Made by a program: the position numbers and the translations under genes. 64,000 bases of DNA from Branchiostoma floridae. Its lineage: Eukaryota > Chordata > Leptocardii > Amphioxiformes > Branchiostomatidae. Positions 41,401 to 63,398 of the stretch are shown here, in pieces (within the stretch, counting starts at the first letter, position 1; the number at the start of each line of letters is the position of its first letter). Where the stretch lies: the NCBI RefSeq assembly GCF_000003815.2, contig NC_049985.1, positions 5,151,502 to 5,215,501 on the forward strand, in the 5' to 3' direction. The notes below the pieces were generated by a model. That model was given only the letters and a program-made list of their open reading frames with translations, was not told the DNA's origin and did not search any database.

Positions 41401-43755
41401 AGAAATACAAGACTTATTTCTGTGACTAGGTTCTTCAGGTTAGCAGGTCATTGCAATATGGGATTCTTACTACAAAACCACAAATTTCATACCTGCGATA
41501 TTCCAAAATAAATCAACATTTTTTCTTCTTCATTGCATTGCTTGTACAATGATATGTTAGAAAAATGAGCTTCTGTAGCATTTTGTGTTCTGCGGTGATA
41601 AATGATGACACAACACAGATGCAGATTCTCTTCAGCAACGTGATTGCTATAAGTCAGTTCATGGTTTGAACTGCACATGCAGGGTGGTGCATTGTGGGTA
41701 ATAGGTCAAAGGTTAAGGTCACTGAGACATAAATAAAATATATCTAGACATGATTAAGTGTGTTGTAGACAAGAACTGTTTAGGAAGTAGAAACCTTCAC
41801 CTTTGACATTGCACATGTGTAGTACGTATCAGAATCATCTTTATTGACATACAAATACAAGATGAAAGATTAAAATACCTAGGCCAGCCCTTTTTCCAGA
41901 CTTACGATGTGCAGAGGGCGCAAGGTAAAACATATTGAAAAGAACAATCGTGTGCATCGGACTCAGATACAGACTGTTTTAAAATTCTTTAAACATATGG
42001 CACAAGAAGATTGCAAAACTCATATATTGCACTAATTGTCATATTGCACAATCTCATGTAACGATAACAACTATCAGCAGCTTGAGAATAGACCGAGAGG
42101 TTTTTCCCACCCAACTGTATTTCTTGCACAATATATAACATATGAAGTGCATACTGCACACTTTCCTAACTTGCGTTTCAGCTGGCAGACTTCGCGTTCC
42201 TTGTAGCTTAGCCTATTGGTAAACCCTAGTACCTTGTTACCCTGTACCCTACAGACTACACCACCTACCCAGCATCCTCCCTCACATCCGCTTCAACCTG
42301 CTGACCTCAGACGACACGGCAGCCATCTTGGGTCACCCCCTGGTCAGAGAGGATCCTGAGAGGACTGTTATCACGAACTTAGTAAAGGAGAGTTCCAACC
42401 TACCGAGAAGAGTTGGGATGGACTCACTGGAAATGGCTCTTCTTTTCTGTACAAGGTCAGTTGATTACTGTGCAATGTCATGTACTTGACTTATTTCCAC
42501 TTCTTTGGAATGTTCCTTGTGCACTTTTGTTTGCTTTCCTGACATTAATTTGTACCATATTTCTTTAAATTTTGCAGTGTTTTTTTTAAATGAAGACCTT
42601 TATTGCACATTTACATGTTGAAGAGATACAGGTTACAGATACAAAATTAACTGTGTTGGCACTTTTTGCCCCAAACTTGAAACCACCATTACTGCACTGT
42701 ATTGTAGCTATAAAACTGCTACACAGCTGTCATAAAAGTATAGACTATAGAGCTATCTATCATAGAATGACAGTGAATTTTCTACGATAATTATTACAGA
42801 TTAAATCACCATGAACTTTAAAGCATTTACATTAAATTTTTGCTGTCCCTCCAGCTCCAATGAGATCCTCTACATGAACCCTCGTTCAGGGAAATACATC
42901 AGCTGCAGTTACGATTGTGAGAGTCTGCGTTCAGCCGAGGCCATAACAGTTACCAGCAACAATGATATTTACATCCTGGCAGAAGAACCAGAGGATCCCG
43001 ATCTCTTGTACATGTTAGAGTACAACCATGCAGGCAATATGTGGGAATGTGCCAGGCCACCCTCAATGTATAGGCCTGAAAAAGACACCAACTTGGGGCT
43101 TCACTACAAGTGCCTTGTTGAAGCTGATGGGGTTTTATATTACCTTTATGTGGTAAGTAGGAGAATCAGTGCATCAGTGTGGATCAGGAAGTACAACTGG
43201 CAGACAGACCAATGGCAGGAGTGTTCCCGGCTAAAACTCAGAGAAGCAGACGTCGAGTACATGACAACTTTGTCCTGCGGTCCACACCTCTACTTCCTTC
43301 AGAACACAGATTTGCATCGCTACGACCCAGACCAGGACCGCTGGTGCAAGCTGACTCCACCGAAAGTCATGCCTCATCTCTACACAGCTGCCGCACTCGG
43401 AGCAGAGATCTTTTGTGCAGATCATGAATTCACCAAAGCCATGGTGTACCATACAGAGTCAGACTGCTGGCAGATACTTCGGGGCTGGAGAGCAGGACCA
43501 ATGTACATGGACCACACATTTACTCCCAATTTCTTTGTCCTGGAGAACCAGCTGTACTTATTGTTAGAACAGTTTAACGGTATCTATGACACGGCAGAAG
43601 ACTCTCTCATATTTGTGTATGACAGGGCTTCAGATGCTTGGAGTTCTAGAGGCTTGAGGGCCACCTTGCCTATCAAGGATGTAGATAAGGTGTCAGGACT
43701 CCTGTTGCCTGTTGCGCACATGTACCTACCATGTCTAAAAGGGGAGGACAAATAG
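38495..43755 (+). CDS. BTB-BACK-Kelch protein (KLHL-like), 5 exons
   Basis: Exons: 38495-38749, 40197-40457, 41009-41148, 42255-42455, 42855-43755, phases agreeing, about 585 aa. The BTB domain covers residues 42-135 (DVVIEVEDHQFPCHRLVLSA, FRAMFTSGM, LSYIYTG). BACK follows in exons 3-4 (CRLSVDQLTEIISHDEL, VWEAVVRWV, IRFNLLT). Exon 5 holds a diverged Kelch-type propeller with W- and G-containing blades such as KYNWQTDQWQECSRL. Proteins of this layout serve as CUL3 ubiquitin-ligase adaptors or actin-associated scaffolds; the target is unknown. The ATG has a good context (CAACATGGCT). The exon 2 donor AAG|GTTGGT is weak but keeps the frame and matches the paralogue at the other end of the window. 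An orthologous vertebrate KLHL number cannot be given. A poly(A) signal candidate, AATAAA, is at 44610. Confidence 0.92.
39358..39981. mobile_element. 624-bp DNA transposon relic with 8-bp target duplication in Kelch intron 1
   Basis: Left end GGGAACGGGTTTTCTGCGCG and right end (complement) GGGATGGGGTTTTGTGCGCG are inverted repeats of about 24 bp. GCTCACCT flanks both sides (39350-39357 and 39982-39989), an exact 8-bp duplication. Both subterminal zones are packed with GCGCGTGAAAA-type motifs, and ATCCCTTGGGAAT..GCTAATTTGCAT-like blocks occur twice inside (39543, 39886). No transposase. The duplication length fits hAT or P families. Confidence 0.88.
40061..40150 (+). mobile_element. SINE fragment
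   Basis: TTGTGCCCTTGTGAAAGTCACTTTACAC-type block followed by TTTGAAAATGAGTATCAAGC. Body fragment lying directly before Kelch exon 2. Confidence 0.75.
41820..42180. other. Probable retroposon remnant in Kelch intron 3
   Basis: ATCTTTATTGACATACAAATACAAGATG at 41833 read on the minus strand looks like a LINE or retropseudogene 3' tail (TCAATAAAGAT). A comparable CTTTATTGCACATTTACATG is at 42598. No coding part is recognisable. Confidence 0.35.
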
Positions 43756-46286: not shown

Positions 46287-49200
46287 ATGTCGCTGCCAAG
46301 CACGCAAGATCCAAAACCTGCGACACCCACGCCAACCAAGCTGGGAAGCAACAGGGACCCGAACACCATGTCCAAGCCAACCACGCCGCCTGGCACCCTG
46401 GATCCAAACCCCACCCCCAAACCAACCAAGCCACCAGACACCCTGGATCCAAACCCCACCAACAAGCCAACCACGCCACCAGGCACCCTGGATCCAAACC
46501 CCACCGACAAGCCAACCACGCCGCCAGGCACCCTGGACCCAAATCCCACCCCCAAACCAACCACGCGATCTGGCACCCTGGACCCAAATTCCACCCCCAA
46601 ACCAACCAACTCACCAAGCAATCCGGACCCGAACCCCATGTCCAAGCCAACCACGTCGCCAAGCAACCCCGACCTGAACCCTATGTTGAAGCCAACTCTG
46701 CTGCAAAGCATCCGGGACCCGAACCCAACATACAAGCCATCCCAGTCGATCTATCAGCGTGAAGCAGAAAACGTCCGAAACCCCAACCCGACGTACCCAC
46801 AAACCACACCGATGGACCAGCCAGACGTTCACCCTGATTCTGCTCTCGATTCGGCTGGTCAGAATTCCCGCATTGTAGATTCTCATGTGCATGATGGTAA
46901 AACAGCCAACAATGAGGGTGATCCTCTTACTCAACACTCTGTCGCGGCCCGTCTCATAGATGATGAAACCGCCACTGCAACAGCTACCAGTGATGGGAAT
47001 GCAGGGAGTCACCCTCATCATAGTAGTGCTGTTCCTTTGAGTTTGAGCCCCGCCGACAGCAACGATGGCAATCCCTGCCACCAACCACATGCTGTTCCAC
47101 ATCTCAAGTCTGATGAGACTGCCTCGGCTAAGCATGATGCCGGCGCCTGCCTGCCACCAAATAATACTGCATCCCAGAGCCGTGACGAAGCTTCTATGAG
47201 GCGATCTGACAGTGATGATAGCCTTTCTATCCAGCCATATGCTGTTAGATACCAGGAAGAAGAAGAAGACGGCAACAGTTTGCGCGCAGCAGATTATACT
47301 TTAACAGGGAACACACCATTTGTTCCACCCACCCCTTCTGATGACGATGGCGATATTGAACCGTACGCTGTTGCCTACATGGGGCAGGGAGACACGATAT
47401 TTGTGAAGAAATGTACAGACGGATCGAATACGTCGACAAGAAACAGGAATGACATCTCCGCCAGCTTGGAAGGATGTGACTCGGCCATCACTGGCGCCAA
47501 CGCTTCGGCCTCTGCCGGGATTGATGCTCGGCATGAAGCTTCGCTGAACCCAAACCCGATGTACTGGCAAAACGCATTAAACCCGAATCCGATGTACCAG
47601 CCAAACTTCGGACAACAACCTACTTGTGGTAAGACACGTGTCTTGTTCCTTAATGTGTCAGCGTTCCCGTTTCTACGTGTATTCAACCCCTCTCTTGCGC
47701 AATTTCATGATCCGAAATATCTCGTCAATCATAATATAAGCCGGTTCCTGGATTTAACTGTGAACGAACCGCGAGATTCGTTGTGATATGCCAAATATGT
47801 CAAAAAGCATTGAAACAAGTAATAGTAAAGGGGTCTTCACTTTTGACCTCGCGCATGCACAGTTCAAACCGCAAACTGACTTACAGCTTATTTTTTCCCC
47901 TCCCATCAAATGATAGGTACAGGTTTTCTGGCCTGCATGCACGCGTGTTACGGCTTGTGCCGCCGCCATGCAGGGAAAATCATCTTCATGGTTGTGTTGC
48001 TCGTCTGTTTCACATTCGCCGGATTATACTTCAGCGGAAGAGTGCAGGTCGGTCACAAGGTGCGTCGCGATTTTTGTTAATGTACCATTTTTAAATTCAC
48101 TTTTAAGTTTTAGTTGATATATTCAAATTTTCTGTTTACAAACTGTATAGGTTTTGTTTCTTTTTAGTGTACTCGAATTGTTACGGATTCCAGGAAGAAT
48201 AGTGAAACGATAAATAATGTTAAGTTTAACAATAATGGAGATCCAAATACAAAAGATTGAAAAAGAAACAAACCAAGATCTTGCAATGCCATATGCTGCT
48301 GTAGTGCGTCTCTTTGTTATGTTTAAATTTTTTTCGGGCTTTTATTAATTTTGTAGCCAGCATGACCCCCATGGTGTAACACACCAGTTTTGCTTAAACG
48401 CGGCACGGTAGAAGTTTTATTACGCTGAACAGTGCTTGTAGTTTGATTACGCTGTTCAATGCTTGTAGTGAGTATGACCTCACTGTACTTGGTAGCAACG
48501 AGTTCCACATTTATCTTTAGATGCAGTGTAAAAATAAGTACATTTCACCTGCAAATGTCCCAAAGCTCTTTGAAACCCTTACCTCAATTTCCCGTGAGAA
48601 CTTTCACCATCTCAAAAATTTGAAAATATATTCCTACTACAACTACAAAAACCCACCAATCATTCGAAACGTAGGACTATTCATTAGCTTTTGCCTTAAA
48701 CGGAGAAAGGTCAACCCTCCAATGATGTATACACAAACAAAAAATGAAAATATTGAAATTGTGCCACTTTTTTGCGTTAACGTATCTGTGTATACCTTTC
48801 AACTAGTCATAAGGTATAAGATTTGCAATTAACGATCTAACCAAATTGTCAACCAGCATCTTAATTTTTGTTACTTTCTTTTACATCGGTTTGCATTTTT
48901 GCTCTGTTTGATGTTATTTTGTCTTTACATATATAGTTATAGGAATGTCATAAACAAATCATAATAATTGTTATAATGATTCGTATAACCTCTTGTTCAG
49001 GAAGCACTAAACCTAATTACGTTTCTGGTCTTCCCCGTCTGTTCCTTTTCCCTATTGTTACATGTAGTAAGAATTTTCGTTGTAATAATTCTGGGAAAAG
49101 CGAATTCTAACTCAGTTTTGGGTTGATAACTGTAAGTAATTCAAGGCATGAATGTTTCTCGTTCTCTTCGTTGAGCTTGATGTCATAGTCGTGACACCAG

Positions 49201-51817
49201 CCATGGAAAAATCCTCCACCACCCCTGGACATCCAGTGTGTTGCAGCTCTGGTAATACGACAACGCCTAACCCAATGTCCAAGGTGAGTTGCGGCGTTTC
49301 TCATCTTCTGGGTTTTCTCATATTTTCCAATCGACTTTGAAAAATTGGGTTGACCACAACTGAATACGTGTCACTCGTCCTTAAAACATGAGAACGTTTA
49401 CAACATGTGGAACTGATGAGTTGCAAGAGCTGCAAGCGATGACATCTTTAGACACCTCCCACGCAACTACTCATGCAACACATTTTAGGCCAGTGAAATG
49501 GCCAAGTGAGCATTCGCCGTGCATTCGGTAGGCCGTTTGAGTTCCGGCCCAATCTTACCAAAGACATTAAAAATAATACATACATGTACTGCTTGATTTG
49601 CTTGGAACTTAGCATATAAAACGTAGGATACAAAGTAGGATAGTTGAATTCACATCACTGCCAATGAATTAGCTCCCTATACTGTAGTGATTACACCGTT
49701 ATTGAAATGCGATTGGCGCCGCCGTATGCACCAACAGCTGCCGAGATGACGTAAAATTCAACACATTAATTATTTGACGACCGTGCATTTTCACTACCTA
49801 AATTACAGTTAACATCAGCTACGGACAATATCTCCATCCCTGATCACTCTGCTCCGGACACTCCTTACACCCCGGGTCTCCCTACACGCTACATCACCGA
49901 GGGGTCAACAGGGGATAGTGTAACGTCCACTAGTTCTACCAACAGCTCTTCTTCTGTGCAAACAACCCCAACACTACCATCCTACTCCAATGGTAACAAT
50001 ACTACTGGAATCATACATGTGAAATGTGTACAGTTAGTAAATCTTCAATTTTACGTCAGTCTATGGATCTTATTTTACTTCTACATGATGTATATGGAGT
50101 TGGTCTGTTTTAAGTACATTCTTTGATGGCACCAAAATTTACCGGAAAGGCAGCAAAAATATGATTTTGTGGAAAGCTTTGTTGCAAGCTTAAAAACACA
50201 TGCCGAGTTTATGGTCCATCATGTTTTGGGGTACAGAGCACTGGTAGGACCTAACAAAGTGCATGACTGTTCCAGTTGGACGCGTGTCCAAAAGAACCTA
50301 GACTGCTGCGCAGTATAAAAGAAATTAAAGCGCAAATATATGCATTTGTGGCAGAGACTGTCATTCTCGTATAGGACTGTTAATCCATAGCCGGATGGCT
50401 AATGTTAATCAGGATTTTACTGTGGTCAATATTGATATGTACGATACTTGTTGATCTCTTCTTGCAGAGACCAATGGAGGACGGGCGGACCCGGTCGTCT
50501 TTGGTGGTGGAGGATCGGAACCAGGGAAGTTCACACGAAACTACGGAGTAGCCGTGTCTGCTGATAATGAGATATTCGTGACTGATCTCGGCAACCAGCG
50601 AGTCCAGGTCTTCAGCATGGAGGGAACCTATCTCCGCCTCTTTCCAACGGTCCTGCCGGCTGGCAAAGGACAAAAGATTGAACCCTACGATGTTGCCATG
50701 GATGGAAAAGGGCATGTTTGGGCGGTGGGATACAGAGAAAAGGTGAGCATCCGCCCGTGAATGAGTGCGAAATTTTAGTATGTTTAGCTGAACTTGCAAA
50801 GTATCGCAACCACCCGTCGAACTTCCTACATTTTCCAGATGATGTTTTAAACTATTGGCTTCTTGAACAGTTTACAAATTATGATCCATACAATTTAATC
50901 ATCTATATATAAGTATTCTAACATAACGATTAGTAACGTTACTAACTAGGAGCTAGTAAACTAAATCATAAATTTTACCGTCGCATATCATTTTTTTTAT
51001 GAAAGAAGAAACATGAAAAACATAATGAAAGGACAGACACGAATTCAAAAAGTGGTGGCGAGCTCAAGTCAACTTAAGTATTAACGTCGCCACTTGTACA
51101 ATGGAAAATGAATATCATAAGACCATTGCACTTTACGCGGATTAACTTTTATGCTAATCTATTTTGTTATTGTTCTGACGGTAGACACAACAGGTATTAC
51201 ATGCGGTACAGTACAGCAAGAACGGCCTACCGACAACTGCAACCACGTTCGACGTCCAGCACCGGACTCGCTACCCGAGCATCGCTGTGGACCTGCGCAA
51301 CAACAACATCATCGTGGTGGCTGCCACACAGATTTTCATTCTACAGCCAACCGGCTCGGTCTATCGTCGTTTCGGAGCGGCTGGGAGATTGAAGGCAGAA
51401 TTCTCTTACGTCACAACCGACCAGGCAAGTAACATCGTTGTCGTGGACACTGCACAGTCCACTGTCCACGTGTACGATCCTTCTGGACGGCATAGGGTTA
51501 CATTTGGAGGCTATGGACAGGGGGAAGGGAAACTTCTTGTACCCAGAGGCATATGCGTAAACAAAACTGGTCACATTTTTGTGGCAGACTGGTTGAAGCA
51601 TAAGGTAGACATGTTCACAAGCAGCGGGGAGTTTGCCCGTACAGTTGTGAACATTTCGTACCCGTGGGGCATTGCTCTGGGCCCAGATGGACATTTGGTG
51701 GTGACCAGGAAGACAGATAATACCGTAACAATATTTCCACGCCAGGCTATTCTGACATCATCATATCGCACCGTGTCAGTGCTGCAGCCAGGTGACGACC
51801 TCCTCATTAGCTTCTAG
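46287..51817 (+). CDS. Type II membrane protein with NPxY/PYAV cytoplasmic motifs and extracellular NHL propeller, 6 exons
   Basis: Exons: 46287-47628, 47923-48059, 49176-49283, 49809-49992, 50468-50742, 51194-51817, about 889 aa. The start may be an upstream in-frame ATG at 46224. The N-terminal 440 residues are Pro/Thr/Ser-rich: a tandem array of a 15-aa unit (LDPNPTPKPTTPPGT-like), then tyrosine motifs DPNPTYKP, NPNPTYPQ, QPYAVRYQ, EPYAVAYM and NPNPMYW. One TM segment (FMVVLLVCFTFAGLYF) follows the basic CRRHAGK, so the N-terminus should be cytoplasmic. Exons 3-4 encode a Ser/Thr-rich stalk. Exons 5-6 encode about six NHL repeats (GVAVSADNEIFVTDLGNQRVQVF, GICVNKTGHIFVADWLKHKV). NPxY binds PTB domains and acts in endocytosis, so a receptor or scavenger role is an inference. 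Weak point: the exon 3 acceptor is TTGAG, chosen because it alone keeps the frame. Exon 2 has an alternative acceptor six bases upstream. Confidence 0.82.
46341..46735 (+). repeat. 45-bp coding tandem repeat (PNPTxKPTTPPGTLD)
   Basis: About nine in-frame copies of a 45-48-bp unit inside the first coding exon of the NHL gene. Position six of the PNPT core varies (P, N, D, S, L, Y), so only the last copy restores an NPTY motif. The same repeats leave open frames on the minus strand, which are artefacts. Confidence 0.9.
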
Positions 51818-55350: not shown

Positions 55351-55928
55351 AAGACTGATCATTTGTCGCTACTTGAAACGATAAGTCAATAACAAAGCCG
55401 ACGTCAGATATTCTATCTATAACATGACATTGTACAAAATGGTCACCCTTTGTTGTTGCTAATGTCGATCGGCCCAACTGATTGCACCTTCCAATGAAGT
55501 TGAAATATCCGCAAGGCTAAAGTGGTGACAAATATATGTCATTCCCTTCTCTATATGCGTTAAAACGTGATTGTAGGATATAACATTGCTACATGTATCA
55601 GCAAATTGATAGCCTTGATGATGGGAAGCGGTCTTGTTATGCAAATGTCCTAACTGACATAGCTGACACCTAAAATAGTTTTTTCCCCTTATGAGTCATC
55701 TTGATCACTAACTACCACAACGGCAGCAAAAGGTTTTCTTGCGCGAGGCAAAATGTGTTTTTAGATGCACCAAACGATCTAATTTTCGTTTTTTTAACGG
55801 AAATGCACGAAAAGCTGAACAGACATCTTTCATTTGTTTCTTTATTTTTACGGAAGGCGGAACGGCCGCAGGCTGTAGTAGCAAATGTTTATCACACTGT
55901 GCAATGATTCTATTTCCTTACAGGTAAA

Positions 55929-58711
55929 ATGTCCAACAGGCCAAAGAGACTGCTGGTTCTTCTACTGATCATTTTGAAAACTGGACCAACCACAGCCTGC
56001 AGCAGCAGTTGTTCATCAGTCTGTAACTGCAGAGACAGAGGCCTCAGCACGGTGCCTCAAGATCTACCTAGTACTATCACTAGCCTTAATTTAGGGCGCA
56101 ATGCCATCACAAGCCTATCTTCGTCTGACCTCTCAAGGTACAGCAGTTTGACAAAACTGATTATGTTCGGTAACCCAATAACTATTGTACATCCTGGGGC
56201 ATTTTCAAATCTTATTCACCTTGAACGTTTGAGTGTGACTTCCACCCAACTAACAAACATCCAGTCATATGGTACATACGGTACATTCTCAAATTTACCT
56301 AAGCTGAAAGATTTGTTCCTGGACAAAAACAATCTATCTATCATTCGACCTGGCACATTTTCAAATCTTCCCAGTCTTGAGCTTTTGTACCTGACAGGTA
56401 ACAAACTAACCGACATTGAGCCTGGCGCGTTCACAAAAGTACCCAAGCTTGAAACATTGTACTTGAAGAACAACCATCTAAGTCAATTCCATCCCGAGTC
56501 ATTCTCAAATCTACCAAAGCTTCGAATATTGGACCTATCCTCAAATATGATTTCTAAAGTCGACTCTGATGCATTCTCTAAGATACCCACACTGAGAGAG
56601 CTGGGCCTCGAGTCCAACCAAATAACCTACATTCAACCTGATACATTCAAATTTCTACCGCAGCTCGAGCGGTTGGAGATGGCCTCAAACCAGATAACTA
56701 ACATTGTGCCTAATTCATTCTTAAACCTCCCTCAACTCCAAAGGTTAGAGCTTGACTCCAACCTTATAACCAAGATTCAACCTGCTGTATTCTCAAATCT
56801 CCCAAACTTACAAGCATTGCATCTACAATCTAACCAAATGACTAGCATTCAGCCTGACACATTCTCAAACTTACCAAAGCTTACTAGATATGGATTAAAA
56901 CTGCATAACAACCCCTGGCAGTGTGACTGCAGGATGGTTGCATTCAGGTTAAGGTTGGCCATGTCCCAATTGTTTGAAGACAAAATCATCTGTGAGGAAC
57001 CTGGTAACTTCTATGGGCGAAAACTTCAACATATAGATCCCAAAAAATTGATATGTGAAAAACCGTCTGTCGTGCGCTTTCAAAAAAGCAACGATCTCGC
57101 ACTGCTGCATGAAAAAGCACTGCATTTGGTCTGTAAAGTTTCAGGAATTCCTACACCTGGCATTATGGTCATTCTTCCATCTGGACGAAACGCAACTGTT
57201 GAGTCGGATGGGAGAGTTACTGTGCATAAGAATGGTACTATCATCATAACATACCTAACTACATCAGATTCTGGTCTGTACGTTTGCATTGCAAAAAATT
57301 GTGTTGGCTCTTCGTTTTCCACACTGTTTGTTAACATTGAAATTCCAACATCGGCAATGGCAACAACTTCACCGCTTGGCAGTACAGACGCCACGGTGGT
57401 TACAAGTCCTACTGACCCCGCTCTCTCCACATTCTACATTGATAGTCAAATTACATCAATTGCACCACCAATTACACAATCATACACTGACATTCCAACA
57501 TCGTTAATGGCAACAACTTCATCACTTGGAGGTACAGACAACACACACACAGGCTCAACATTTGCCCTGACAAGTCCTACTGACTCCCATCTTTCTCCTC
57601 TGTTATATTCATAATTCCTATGCTACCTACCATTACGACCTATTTTCTTCTTCACTACTGAACCAGCAGCGCTGTTGCCATAAAGCCAACACTTTCCACA
57701 CTATATGGTGTCCCGATCACTCTGAGTTTCACAAAGATCAAGAATGAAACATTGTTTTGGGGGGACACTCTCCGTCTGGTCTGTGAAGCTTCGGGAATCT
57801 CCTCAGCAAAGATGACGATTATTCTCCCATCTGGGCTCAACGCAAACGCTGAGACAAGTGGAAGAGTAACCGTAGAGGCTAATGACACACTGACTACCAC
57901 CATAACAGATGTTACAGAGGCAGATGCTGGTATGTACACCTGCGTTGCATTAGGTCCTGTTGGATTCATGTCTGCCACACTAACTGTTGACATCAGAAGC
58001 CCAACTTCAGTTTCCCCCCAGTTCGCTTCGCCTGCGTCCTTTCCGCCTGACCAGACAGAAGGCAATGCTGACACGTTAGTCTTCTCCCTAAAAGTTGGCT
58101 CTAGTACATTTGGCGTAGTCATGATTATATTTGGTATTATTTCAAGTCTATTTCTGCGCAGGAAAAGAAAGCCTTCTTTAACTTCTGCATCTTCCGATAT
58201 TTCTAACAACATGAGCACAACTATAAAACGTACACACGGACAAGATCATGTATATGATAATGACAATGAAACAGGCACAATCGAACAAGCTAACATATAT
58301 GGGAATGACGAGGGAGCAGGTACAAAGGAACAAGCTCAGATACATGTTTATGACAATGACGAGGATTCCGTTTCTGTTGGTTTTGAAGCCGAGGGGCATG
58401 TGTTTGAGAATGGATATGATACCCCCCAGGCCGTTAATCAGAGTGGCGCTGAGGCAGCAGTGTCTTCTCTGGTTAACCATGTGTATGGCGATGAGGCTCT
58501 CAATTCAGGTCAGTTCATCCATGGGGCTGAGGCAGCTCAAAATATTTCTTCCCAATCTTATGAGGAAGCAGTGTCTGTCGCCTCACCGGCAATTTACCAT
58601 AATAACGGTAAACAGGCAAAATCTGCTGCTGCTCATATCCTCTATGGAAAAGATTATGGGAGAGCAGAAGATGTCACTCCTCAGTTAGTCCATGACAATA
58701 ATGATATCTAG
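55929..58711 (+). CDS. LRR-Ig transmembrane receptor, frame interrupted between Ig domains
   Basis: The first coding block, 55929-57614, has a signal peptide (KRLLVLLLIILKT), an LRRNT (CSSSCSSVCNCRDRGLSTVP), eleven LRRs of about 24 residues, an LRRCT (NPWQCDC), one Ig domain (LVCKVSG...SGLYVCIAKN) and a Thr/Ser stalk ending at a stop. The second block runs in another frame, about 57667-58711: a second Ig (LRLVCEASG...AGMYTCVALG), a TM (FGVVMIIFGIISSLFL) followed by RRKRK, and a tail with repeated YxN motifs (HVYDND, NIYGND, AIYHNN). A good acceptor lies at 57666 (polypyrimidine, CCAG). A phase-matching donor exists at 57325 (CT|GTTTGT), and a weaker one at 57601. A 5'UTR acceptor stands at 55923. 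Function: cell-surface recognition, possibly immune or neural; unproven. AATAAA at 59607 is a poly(A) candidate. LRR3 carries a four-residue insertion (YGTYGT). Confidence 0.85.
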
Positions 58712-60615: not shown

Positions 60616-63398
60616 CTAAACCATGTGTACTACACATTCCTCCTCTTCCTTGTCAGCTTCTTTTAGTCTTCTGTCTATGCCCTTCTTCTCTAGCCATGGA
60701 AGGTACATGCGTGCCACAGGGCACAAGGGACCAGACAACATATCCACGTGTGTGCTGCCGACTTCAAATATGGTGGGCTTCAAACCTCTAGAACTCCAAG
60801 CTTCTGAGGACTTGTCATACACAAATAGGAAAGAGTCTTCAATTGTCTCTAAAGCCATGTCATAGCGTTCCAAGTATAAGTACAGCTGGTTCTCCAAGAC
60901 AAAGAGATGGGGCGTATGGGCAGTCTCAACGCTTCCTGCATCCATCCAGCCTTTAAGAATCTGCCAATGGTCTGAATCTGTATGGTACACCATGGCCTCC
61001 CTGAAGTAAAGATCGGCACAAAAGATCTCTGTTCTGAGCGCAGCGGCTGTGCAGAGTCGAGGAACGATTTGCGGTGGCGTGCGCTTGAACCAGCGGTCCT
61101 TGTATGGGTTGTAGCGATGCATTTCTGTGTTCATGAGGAAATAGATGTGCGGACCACAGGGCAATATTACCTGTTCACCCTCTCCCTCGCCAAGCTCCAG
61201 CTGTGAACACTCCTGCCACTGGTCTGTTTCCCAGCTGTACTTTGTGACCCGCAATGACTTATTGCTCCTTGTACTTACCACGCAAAGGTAATATAAGATC
61301 CCATTGACTTCAACGAGGTACTTTTTGTGCTCTGCAAAATTCTTTCGGTCAGGACTACACACTGGCGATGGGATTGCACGCTCCCACGCATCGTCTGTGT
61401 GGTTGTACTGAAACAGACACGAGTGACTTTCCCACGGCTCTTTTGCCAGGACGTAAATATCGTTGTTGCTGGTGACTGTTATGGCCTGGGCATCAGGCAG
61501 ACTCTCAAAATCATATTTGCCGCTGATGTACTCCCCTGCCCGAGGGTTCATGTAGAGGATCTCATGTTCATTGGTCCTGGACAGGACAAAATGTCAAAAA
61601 CTGTCATGAGTGAAAATTCATGTCAGAACGTCAAGCAAGCAAACAACCAACCAACCAACCAACATTGCACAAGGAGACCTGTCCCTGAATGGTGACACCA
61701 TATTATCACATGCAATGGACTCTTCCAAGGACACCACCGTGCAAAATGGACTCTTCCAAAAATAGGGAGTGAAATATAACACAGATATGGCTGCTGGTGT
61801 CCTAGCTTTGCTATAATTATTTGTGCTGGGATACCTTCACTATGTATAATTTATCTGTTAAAACTTTAAAAGCCCCGACGGGGTTTCGGACAAAATCACA
61901 GCATGCACCGGTGTCATCCATGAAATAAAGTCTTCAAATAAATATAGCCCAAGAAATGATATGTCTAATTAATTAATTAAAGGGACTAGGTGAGGTGAGG
62001 TGAATTAAGTCAGCATATATGTACTGTATAATTTATGACTGTACTGCATATATGTGTTACGGGACCACAAAATTTGTAATGACATGAGCAAGGAATGTCG
62101 AACTTCCCAAAAGTCAGGTATTTACAGACCTTGTACAGAAAACCACAGCCATTTCCAGCGAGTCCATCCCAAGTCTCCTCGGTAGGTTGGAAGTCTCCTT
62201 TACCAAGTTCCTGATGACGGACCTCCCAGGATCCCTCCTGACCAGAGGGTGATTCAAGATGGCTGCCGTGTCATCTGAGGTCAGCAGGTTGAAGCGGATG
62301 TGAGGGAGGATACTGGGCAGGTGGTGAAGTCTGCAGGACGCAAGATGTAGGTTACCCATTACAATCAATATACAGTGGAATCCAACTAATTGCATTACAG
62401 CCTATCGCATGCTTTTATTTCAGTATGTATTACAGTATGGTGGGGTCATTTTTCACTACCGAATACATTTAATTATACAGAGGGCCATTTTTAAACAACT
62501 ACCACCAGGTCACATATATCCACCACCCCCAAAGAATACATGTTAAAAGATCTCCAACACAACATCCCCCAGTATAATACATGTACATGCCTGCATATCT
62601 AAACTGTGCATGCCTCGGGGATGCTGAACTAGAAATATCCCAAACATCCTGTTTTTCAAAGTGGCGGAATTATTAAAACTTGGAGAATGAATGTTTATGA
62701 ATGTTAGAACCTGCATTATATGCTTGATTGTCAGTAGTTATCTGAATGCAGTAGTGTATCTGGTTTCCACATACTAGGCACATCATGGACACAGAAAGGA
62801 AGTTAGGACAAACATCCTAGAAAGGTCTCAGAGCTGCTTACCGGTATCTCACTTTCTGTCTTCAAGGTCCTGCATGGCAGGGTTGGACAAGATCACTTGT
62901 CCTAGTGGGCAAGTAATCAAGTACATACAAAATAATACTTGCCAGGACAAACTTTTTACTTGCCCAAACTTAGAATAACATTCTTCCATGTGTTTCCACT
63001 TCCAGCAATGGAATTCTTTTATCATTGGCTCTGTTTTTCGTTCTGTGTTGACAAATGTTTGATGCCATCACTGTGAAAAGTAACTAGTACGTGAATATCA
63101 AAATCTCGCTCATGGAAAAATTTTACTTCCCCGCAAGAACATCCACTCGCCCAATCTGCACTTTACTGCCCTGGACAATTGTACAAGTTGACTTGTCTAA
63201 ACCTGCAAGAGATCTTCAATTTCTTGAGTTGCAATGCAATATTTTGTATAATGCCCACCTGTCCTCCCTGCTGTGCTGCACCCATCTCACCACAGCCTCC
63301 CACACTGTCATCTCCTCTTTAATATCCAGCTCATCATGGCTGATGATCTCAGTCAGCTGATCAACACTCAAACTGCAGAACTCCTCATGGGTAGCAAA
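60616..63398 (-). CDS. BTB-BACK-Kelch protein, paralogue of the gene at 38495 (5' part beyond the window)
   Basis: Minus-strand exons 63259-63398, 62130-62330 and 60616-61576. The first two are exactly as long as their counterparts in the plus-strand paralogue (140 and 201 bp), with the same phases. They encode the BACK domain (SLSVDQLTEIISHDELDIK, VWEAVVRWVQHSRED; HLPSILPHIRFNLLTSDD). The last exon encodes the diverged Kelch propeller (AITVTSNNDIYVLAKEPWE), 20 residues longer than in the paralogue, mainly at the C-terminal end, which finishes DKEEEECVVHMV. The BTB exons should lie beyond 64000. Same inferred role as the paralogue. Similarity extends a little into the intron before the BACK exon (CTCTGCACCTCCACAG in both). 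Confidence 0.9.

What the first reader, a model, noticed from the sequence alone, without database searches (positions are those of the whole stretch)
46287..51817. Type II NHL receptor with cytoplasmic NPxY and PYAV motifs
Positive-inside topology puts NPTY, NPMY and PYAVxY motifs in the cytoplasm and a six-repeat NHL propeller outside. An extracellular NHL propeller tied to PTB-binding endocytic motifs on one chain would be a distinctive receptor type, possibly an uncharacterised uptake or signalling system.
Basis: partly seen in the sequence, partly recalled or inferred. Interest (0 to 1): 0.8.

Follow-up and report, generated by a model that had tools for sequence, protein, structure and literature searches.

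The report
Large family of inside-out propeller receptors
This stretch of what is very probably a lancelet (amphioxus) genome holds an intact gene for a cell-surface receptor with a propeller-shaped head outside the cell and a tyrosine-rich tail inside, one of dozens of such genes here, and some receptors of a different build carry the same tail motif, which hints at an undescribed recognition system.

Summary
Window 46287-51817 (+) is an intact six-exon gene (894 codons as modelled): N-terminal tail with four NPxY and two PYAVxY motifs, one transmembrane helix, Ser/Thr-rich stalk, six-bladed NHL propeller. It is not unique. A tail search of the same genome gave 166 matches, which I thinned by hand to 114 places: an NHL follows on the same strand at 61 (63 with two later fetches), 13 have LRRs just upstream, 40 (38) are undetermined, none has both. 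One LRR receptor read in sequence (L064) carries PYAVxY C-terminal to its helix, so the module is cytosolic whichever way the chain runs; this is my best topology evidence. Charge agrees (18 of 22 TM exons), sequons weakly. 'PTB/endocytic' is weak: none of the window's four NPxY has a hydrophobic -5 residue (9 of 68 in 30 loci), and 0 of 67 PYAV sites fit ITIM. Most likely a lineage-expanded type II recognition receptor signalling through phosphotyrosine adaptors. Ligand, expression and function are unknown; the species is inferred.

The parts
46287..47628 (+). Exon 1: start codon and cytosolic tail (residues 1-447) with 4 NPxY and 2 PYAVxY; donor GTAAGA, phase 1
   Evidence: the tail has 166 matches in this genome, repeated hits of one frame included; a donor in phase 1 was located in 28 of 30 loci with a loose pattern, one of them (L037) doubtful
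46327..46726 (+). Coding 45-bp minisatellite (8.9 copies) in exon 1, encoding about PNPTxKPTTPPGTLD; most copies lack the tyrosine
46722..46796 (+). Two NPTY motifs
47235..47378 (+). IQPYAVRY and IEPYAVAY motifs
   Evidence: consensus over 67 sites in 30 loci I-Q-P-Y-A-V-x-Y
47553..47597 (+). Two NPNPMY motifs near the end of exon 1
47917..48059 (+). Exon 2: Cys-rich, basic juxtamembrane segment and transmembrane helix (about residues 469-489)
   Evidence: 52-63% identical in the three closest paralogues
49176..49283 (+). Exon 3 (tentative acceptor): Thr/Ser-rich stalk with a CC pair
   Evidence: similar CC segments can be read in L040 and L044, not tested by a search
49809..49992 (+). Exon 4: Ser/Thr-rich stalk with NIS and NSS sequons
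   Evidence: matched in two of the three closest paralogues, 42-46%
50468..50742 (+). Exon 5: NHL blades 1-2
51185..51817 (+). Exon 6: NHL blades 3-6, C-terminus and stop

Best explanation
A type II single-pass cell-surface receptor of a large, lineage-expanded family. The six-bladed NHL propeller, held out on a probably glycosylated Ser/Thr-rich stalk, binds an external ligand. Clustering would let a Src- or Abl-type tyrosine kinase phosphorylate the N-terminal tail (IxPYAVxY and NPMY), which then recruits phosphotyrosine-binding adaptors and so triggers signalling or engulfment. Type I LRR receptors carry the same PYAV module, so both classes probably feed one pathway, much as KIR and Ly49 receptors of opposite topology do in mammals (recalled). 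The number, spread and divergence of copies point to recognition of variable ligands (microbes, or self versus non-self) rather than housekeeping. Shown: the open gene model, the family, and the module in LRR genes. Supported by inference: topology. Inferred only: phosphorylation, adaptors, ligand, immune role.
For: Gene model in one frame. NHL profile and solved-structure matches. The three closest paralogues, on other loci, keep the order tail, TM, NHL; TM 52-63% and NHL exons 56-69% identical (75% over one 32-residue piece), tail 52-58%. Of 28 further tail loci read in sequence, 21 have an NHL downstream (16 of 18, one of them, L030, broken by an N gap; a 17th, L025, by coordinates 9.9 kb away; 2 of 6; 2 of 3), 4 are LRR genes, 2 show no NHL (L013, L014) and 1 was read too short (L067). 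53 of 71 dispersed NHL exons have a tail upstream. Module sharing: one open frame in L064 runs LRR, stalk, helix, KRR, four PYAVxY. Charge: K+R 56 on the tail side and 20 on the NHL side over 22 TM exons, Wilcoxon p 8e-5. Sequons against shuffles: 15 linked NHLs 36 seen, 26.7 expected; 30 tails 101 seen, 128.5 expected; 7 other NHL pieces 4 seen, 8.2 expected; a sequon at one site in 12 of 15 linked NHLs (alignment). NHL dN/dS about 0.27-0.47 over 7 pairs, from the dN and dS printed.
Against: No transcript, protein, expression or ligand data. The window copy lacks the family sequon (TGS for NGS) and its own TM flanks carry equal charge. Raw sequon density is nearly the same in the linked NHLs (0.89 per 100 residues) and the tails (0.83); only the comparison with shuffles separates them, and 3% of shuffles reach the NHL count. 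The NHL has few cysteines (0-5), unlike many extracellular propellers (recalled). No ITIM, YxxPhi on the first PYAV tyrosine, or general hydrophobic -5. The closest other NHLs include those of the C17 cluster, whose one member read has no membrane segment that I noticed (L006). 38 of 114 tail places are undetermined. The immune role rests on analogy.
Confidence: 0.6

Rival explanations
1. Same chain and topology, but the propeller works in cell-cell adhesion, NHL to NHL, as in teneurins, with the tail anchoring the cytoskeleton.
For: [quoted passage not shown] The tail is long and repetitive.
Against: Dozens of dispersed, divergent copies and a tail module shared with LRR genes fit variable recognition better than a conserved adhesion code.
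Confidence: 0.2
2. One reading: a constitutive uptake receptor driven by NPxY through PTB/clathrin adaptors.
For: NPxY is strongly enriched: 68 seen in 30 loci against 2.9 on average (maximum 8) in shuffles.
Against: Hydrophobic -5 is absent in 4 of 4 window motifs and present in 9 of 68; no hydrophobic +3 after the first PYAV tyrosine in 67 sites.
Confidence: 0.12
3. Reversed topology: the NHL is cytosolic, like TRIM-NHL proteins, on a membrane-tethered protein.
For: NHL similarity to TRIM-NHL structures and to cluster C17 NHLs; few cysteines; raw sequon density no higher to speak of than in the tails, and a charge tie in the window copy.
Against: Positive-inside charge over the family and sequons against shuffles; PYAV module C-terminal of the helix in the LRR gene L064.
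Confidence: 0.06
4. Two neighbouring genes, or an assembly or prediction artefact, joined by eye.
For: Artefactual domain combinations have been argued for lancelet gene sets (PMC4967905, search listing only).
Against: The same order recurs at dispersed loci on many contigs and splice phases fit.
Confidence: 0.02

Closest known systems
Teneurins
   Same: Type II single-pass protein with a cytosolic N-terminus (PMC6510184, search listing) and an NHL propeller in its extracellular part (PMC5851990 and PMC11058771, search listings; the exact place recalled)
   Different: No EGF or YD-type family in the tail exon or NHL part; the TEN_NHL profile gives 23.3 bits, under its cut-off of 27.1; different tail; dozens of dispersed copies
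TRIM-NHL / Brat proteins (TRIM2, TRIM3, TRIM71, Thin, Brat)
   Same: Six-bladed NHL propeller; best solved-structure matches
   Different: No RING, B-box or other Pfam family in the tail exon; a transmembrane helix instead
Mammalian paired receptors: KIR (type I) and Ly49 (type II) (recalled)
   Same: Works like: two receptor classes of opposite topology sharing one tyrosine tail module; lineage-specific expansion
   Different: NHL and LRR heads, not Ig and C-type lectin; no ITIM (0 of 67)
Amphioxus LRR receptor BbLcLRR (PMC8211107, passages)
   Same: Lancelet LRR receptor with tyrosine motifs phosphorylated by Lck in its cytoplasmic tail
   Different: Its motifs DDYATV, HDYSEV and HDYDDP are not PYAVxY; no NHL mentioned in the passages seen
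LDL-receptor-type NPxY cargo receptors (recalled)
   Same: NPxY in a cytosolic tail
   Different: Opposite topology; no hydrophobic -5 in the window

Membership tests
NHL repeat domain | Score over the Pfam NHL cut-off and a six-bladed propeller | tested here: met
   58.3 bits, cut-off 20, three stretches passing on their own; six blades readable by eye; no fold was predicted
TRIM-NHL | RING or B-box before the NHL | tested here: not met
   0 Pfam families in the tail exon at E up to 1
Teneurin | EGF repeats and YD shell with teneurin-type NHL | tested here: not met
   None in the tail exon or NHL part; TEN_NHL under its cut-off; the stalk exons were not scanned
Teneurin | Type II topology with NHL outside | tested here: inconclusive
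   Favoured by family charge, the PYAV module in L064 and, weakly, sequons; not measured
ITIM/ITSM receptors | (S/I/V/L/T)xYxx(I/L/V) around the conserved tyrosines | tested here: not met
   0 of 67 PYAV sites
PTB/clathrin NPxY cargo receptors | Hydrophobic residue at -5 of NPxY | tested here: not met
   0 of 4 in the window; 9 of 68 in 30 loci
PTB/clathrin NPxY cargo receptors | Internalisation dependent on NPxY | not testable with these tools
   Needs cells
Tyrosine-phosphorylated immune receptor | Tail phosphorylated on clustering and binding of adaptors | not testable with these tools
   Needs biochemistry

The most novel reading that the evidence does not exclude
Lancelets have an undescribed recognition system in which one tyrosine-phosphorylation module (IxPYAVxY, with NPMY on the NHL side) is used both by a large type II NHL-propeller receptor family and by type I LRR receptors, so that two unrelated diversified ectodomain classes of opposite topology signal through one shared pathway.
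Probability: 0.45. Interest if true: 0.8.

Novelty: new variant of a known kind. Interest (0 to 1): 0.62.

Why it matters
NHL propellers are known mostly as RNA- or protein-binding parts of cytosolic TRIM-like proteins (recalled). A large family that puts them outside the cell, with a tail motif shared with LRR receptors, would add a propeller class to the known recognition heads of animal immunity, show independent evolution of the dual-topology, shared-tail design in a chordate without adaptive immunity, and give a simple handle (the PYAV module) for finding the downstream pathway.

Tried and rejected
Rejected: chance or two-gene artefact; the window copy as a pseudogene (open frames, in-phase splices, dN/dS below 1). 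A tree of NHL domains was uninformative: the TRIM-type rows were cut imprecisely and fell among the receptors, so I draw nothing on single or multiple origin of the fusion. A third ectodomain class on the same tail was looked for: L013/L014 (C5, tandem) have tail, helix and a short Asn/Thr-rich outer part with no NHL found; 38 of 114 tail places stay undetermined, these two included. Literature: the listings (5 to 25 papers listed of up to 828 found) showed no title or abstract start on extracellular NHL receptors in lancelets; PYAVAY and NPNPMY occur in 0 papers. That library lacks most subscription journals, so this is weak evidence of novelty.

Limits of the counts: the 114 tail places are a hand-thinned copy of the list (166 matches from 150 of 194 candidates scored, not all printed; repeated hits of one frame dropped by eye; a 3-kb merge leaves 113). 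At ten places an NHL was entered by hand, some of which also match by coordinate. Two tail places may share one NHL, so 53 distinct NHL exons with a tail is the safer count. 'LRR upstream' means an LRR match within a fixed distance on the same strand; comparing the open-frame lengths printed, 11 of the 13 pairs share one frame length and 2 do not (C3:13828594, C12:22863744). Only one such LRR frame (L064) was read in full; it is the tandem neighbour of the listed tail hit. Contig lengths in the random-placement test were partly approximate. In one search the 22 TM exons were picked by eye; loci without a clear one were left out.
Full report
Where it is. The window lies at G000:C7:5151502-5215501 of a genome of 513,431,437 bases in 431 contigs. 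No tool names the species. Size, about 19 large contigs (the contig lengths seen for numbers up to C19 are 17 to 35 Mb) and the gene styles fit Branchiostoma floridae: 19 chromosomes are stated in PMC12373286 (passage); the assembly size and gene styles are recalled. I treat 'lancelet' as very likely, not shown.

The gene. Exons 46287-47628, 47917-48059, 49176-49283, 49809-49992, 50468-50742 and 51185-51817 join in one frame of 894 codons with GT/AG borders. Exon 3's acceptor is my choice among in-frame sites, and leaving exon 3 out also keeps the frame. The residues MSL at the start recur in two of the three closest paralogues (L010, L012) while the residues before them do not, which supports this start and argues against a signal peptide; the frame of the third (L011) does not show it, and L010 has an earlier in-frame ATG. 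Of 11 tyrosines before the helix, 8 sit in NPxY or PYAVxY. A coding 45-bp minisatellite (46327-46726) makes N-terminal PNPTxKPTT repeats, most without tyrosine.

The ectodomain. Pfam NHL 58.3 bits. Phmmer against the PDB gives Thin, TRIM71, TRIM2, TRIM3 and Brat NHL domains; Brat aligns as one stretch. E-values of multi-stretch repeat matches are inflated. Six blade motifs can be read. In paralogues L010 and L011 the NHL is one uninterrupted frame; the window copy has a 442-bp GT/AG intron inside it.

The family. The tail search gave 166 matches. In 30 tail loci, the window's own copy included, there are 68 NPxY, where shuffles give 2.9 on average and 8 at most, and 67 PYAVxY with consensus I-Q-P-Y-A-V-x-Y. 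A phase-1 donor was located in 28 of 30 with a loose pattern, one doubtful. Of 28 further tail loci read in sequence, 21 have an NHL, 4 are LRR genes, 2 have a short outer part and no NHL found, 1 was read too short. The NHL search scored 130 of 762 candidates: 59 lie in a C17 cluster (17.2-19.0 Mb), none with a listed tail within 12 kb, and 71 are dispersed, 53 with a tail less than 12 kb upstream on the same strand, median 2.7 kb. Fifteen of the 71 also have a tail downstream on the same strand, as expected in tandem arrays; 1 has one on the other strand; 18 have no listed tail. Over 114 tail places: 61 NHL, 13 LRR, 0 both, 40 neither; two of the 40 then proved to have an NHL.

Topology. In L064 (C6) a single 657-residue frame runs LRR, Ser/Thr stalk, helix, KRR, four PYAVxY and LYNPA repeats (LRR_8 50.2 bits). 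There the module is cytosolic if the LRR is outside. In the NHL family the same module precedes the helix, next to the basic Cys-rich flank, so the NHL should be outside. Charge agrees (56 against 20 K+R; 18 greater, 3 equal, 1 less, of 22 TM exons picked by eye), and so do sequons against shuffles: NHLs 36 seen and 26.7 expected (3% of shuffles reach it), tails 101 and 128.5 (0.4% are as low), other NHL pieces 4 and 8.2. Against: raw sequon density is almost the same in NHLs (0.89 per 100) and tails (0.83), the window copy's own charge is 3 to 3, it lacks the shared sequon (12 of 15 have it), and cysteines are few. The control NHL set is small (7 pieces) and mixed.

Motifs. The four window NPxY have D, N, N and N at -5; in 30 loci it is hydrophobic in 9 of 68. 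After the tyrosine V or A, P and N are commonest. None of the 67 PYAV sites fits ITIM, and none has a hydrophobic residue at +3 of its first tyrosine; the second was not tested for YxxPhi. So 'PTB-binding endocytic' is a guess that the sequence does not favour; a non-canonical phosphotyrosine site is the better guess. Alanine after tyrosine recalls Abl substrates (recalled).

Selection. dN/dS of the NHL between the window copy and six paralogues, and for one paralogue pair, is 0.27-0.47, from the values printed; dS is partly saturated. The proteins are constrained, not decaying, but diverge freely, as recognition families do.

Comparison. Teneurins set the precedent for an NHL outside the cell on a type II chain, so that feature alone is not new. 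What I did not find described (listings) is the combination and the scale: dozens of NHL receptors, and a tail module shared with LRR genes of the opposite topology. Known lancelet work shows a tyrosine-signalling LRR receptor (PMC8211107, passages) and an LRR phagocytic receptor lacking a cytoplasmic tail, whose authors suggest a coreceptor linking it to Grb2 (PMC10199209, passages); a tail-bearing receptor of this family could be such a partner, which is speculation. A TRIM survey discusses Branchiostoma members of the TRIM subfamily that includes the NHL TRIMs (PMC3503706, passages); the passages seen mention no membrane NHL protein.

Verdict. Real gene model, well-supported but unmeasured type II topology, one of a large family; function inferred. 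Interest 0.62.

Noticed in passing
window 55908-58711 (+): Neighbouring LRR-Ig receptor gene (LRRs, two Ig domains by Pfam; a helix and a tyrosine-rich C-terminal tail with VYDND and IYGND by eye); no PYAV.
   Followed up: partly
L064 (C6:3.377-3.384 Mb) and 13 of 114 tail places: LRR genes with PYAVxY downstream of the LRRs, the two on C6 in tandem; L064 also has repeated LYNPA motifs.
   Followed up: partly
G000 C17:17.2-19.0 Mb; L006: Cluster of at least 59 NHL frames, mostly 450-650 residues; the one read (L006) has a coiled-coil-like part before the NHL and no RING or B-box by Pfam in that frame.
   Followed up: partly
L013, L014 (C5:9.741-9.748 Mb): Tandem genes with the PYAV/NPMY tail and helix but only a short Asn/Thr-rich outer part with repeated sequons; no NHL found.
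   Followed up: partly
window 50743-51184: Intron inside the NHL of the window copy that paralogues L010 and L011 lack: a gain here or losses elsewhere.
   Followed up: no
L065 (C6:1.215-1.218 Mb): Tail made of near-identical NALRPNPMYGG repeats ahead of an NHL: tandem multiplication of the NPMY motif.
   Followed up: no
window 42805-43755 (+) and 60616-61593 (-): Two similar-looking Kelch-like frames on opposite strands; the first scores under the Pfam Kelch cut-offs, the second was only read by eye.
   Followed up: no
L012/L041 (C16:74-82 kb): The NHL of this paralogue lies in two reading frames near its start; an assembly error, variant or damaged copy.
   Followed up: no
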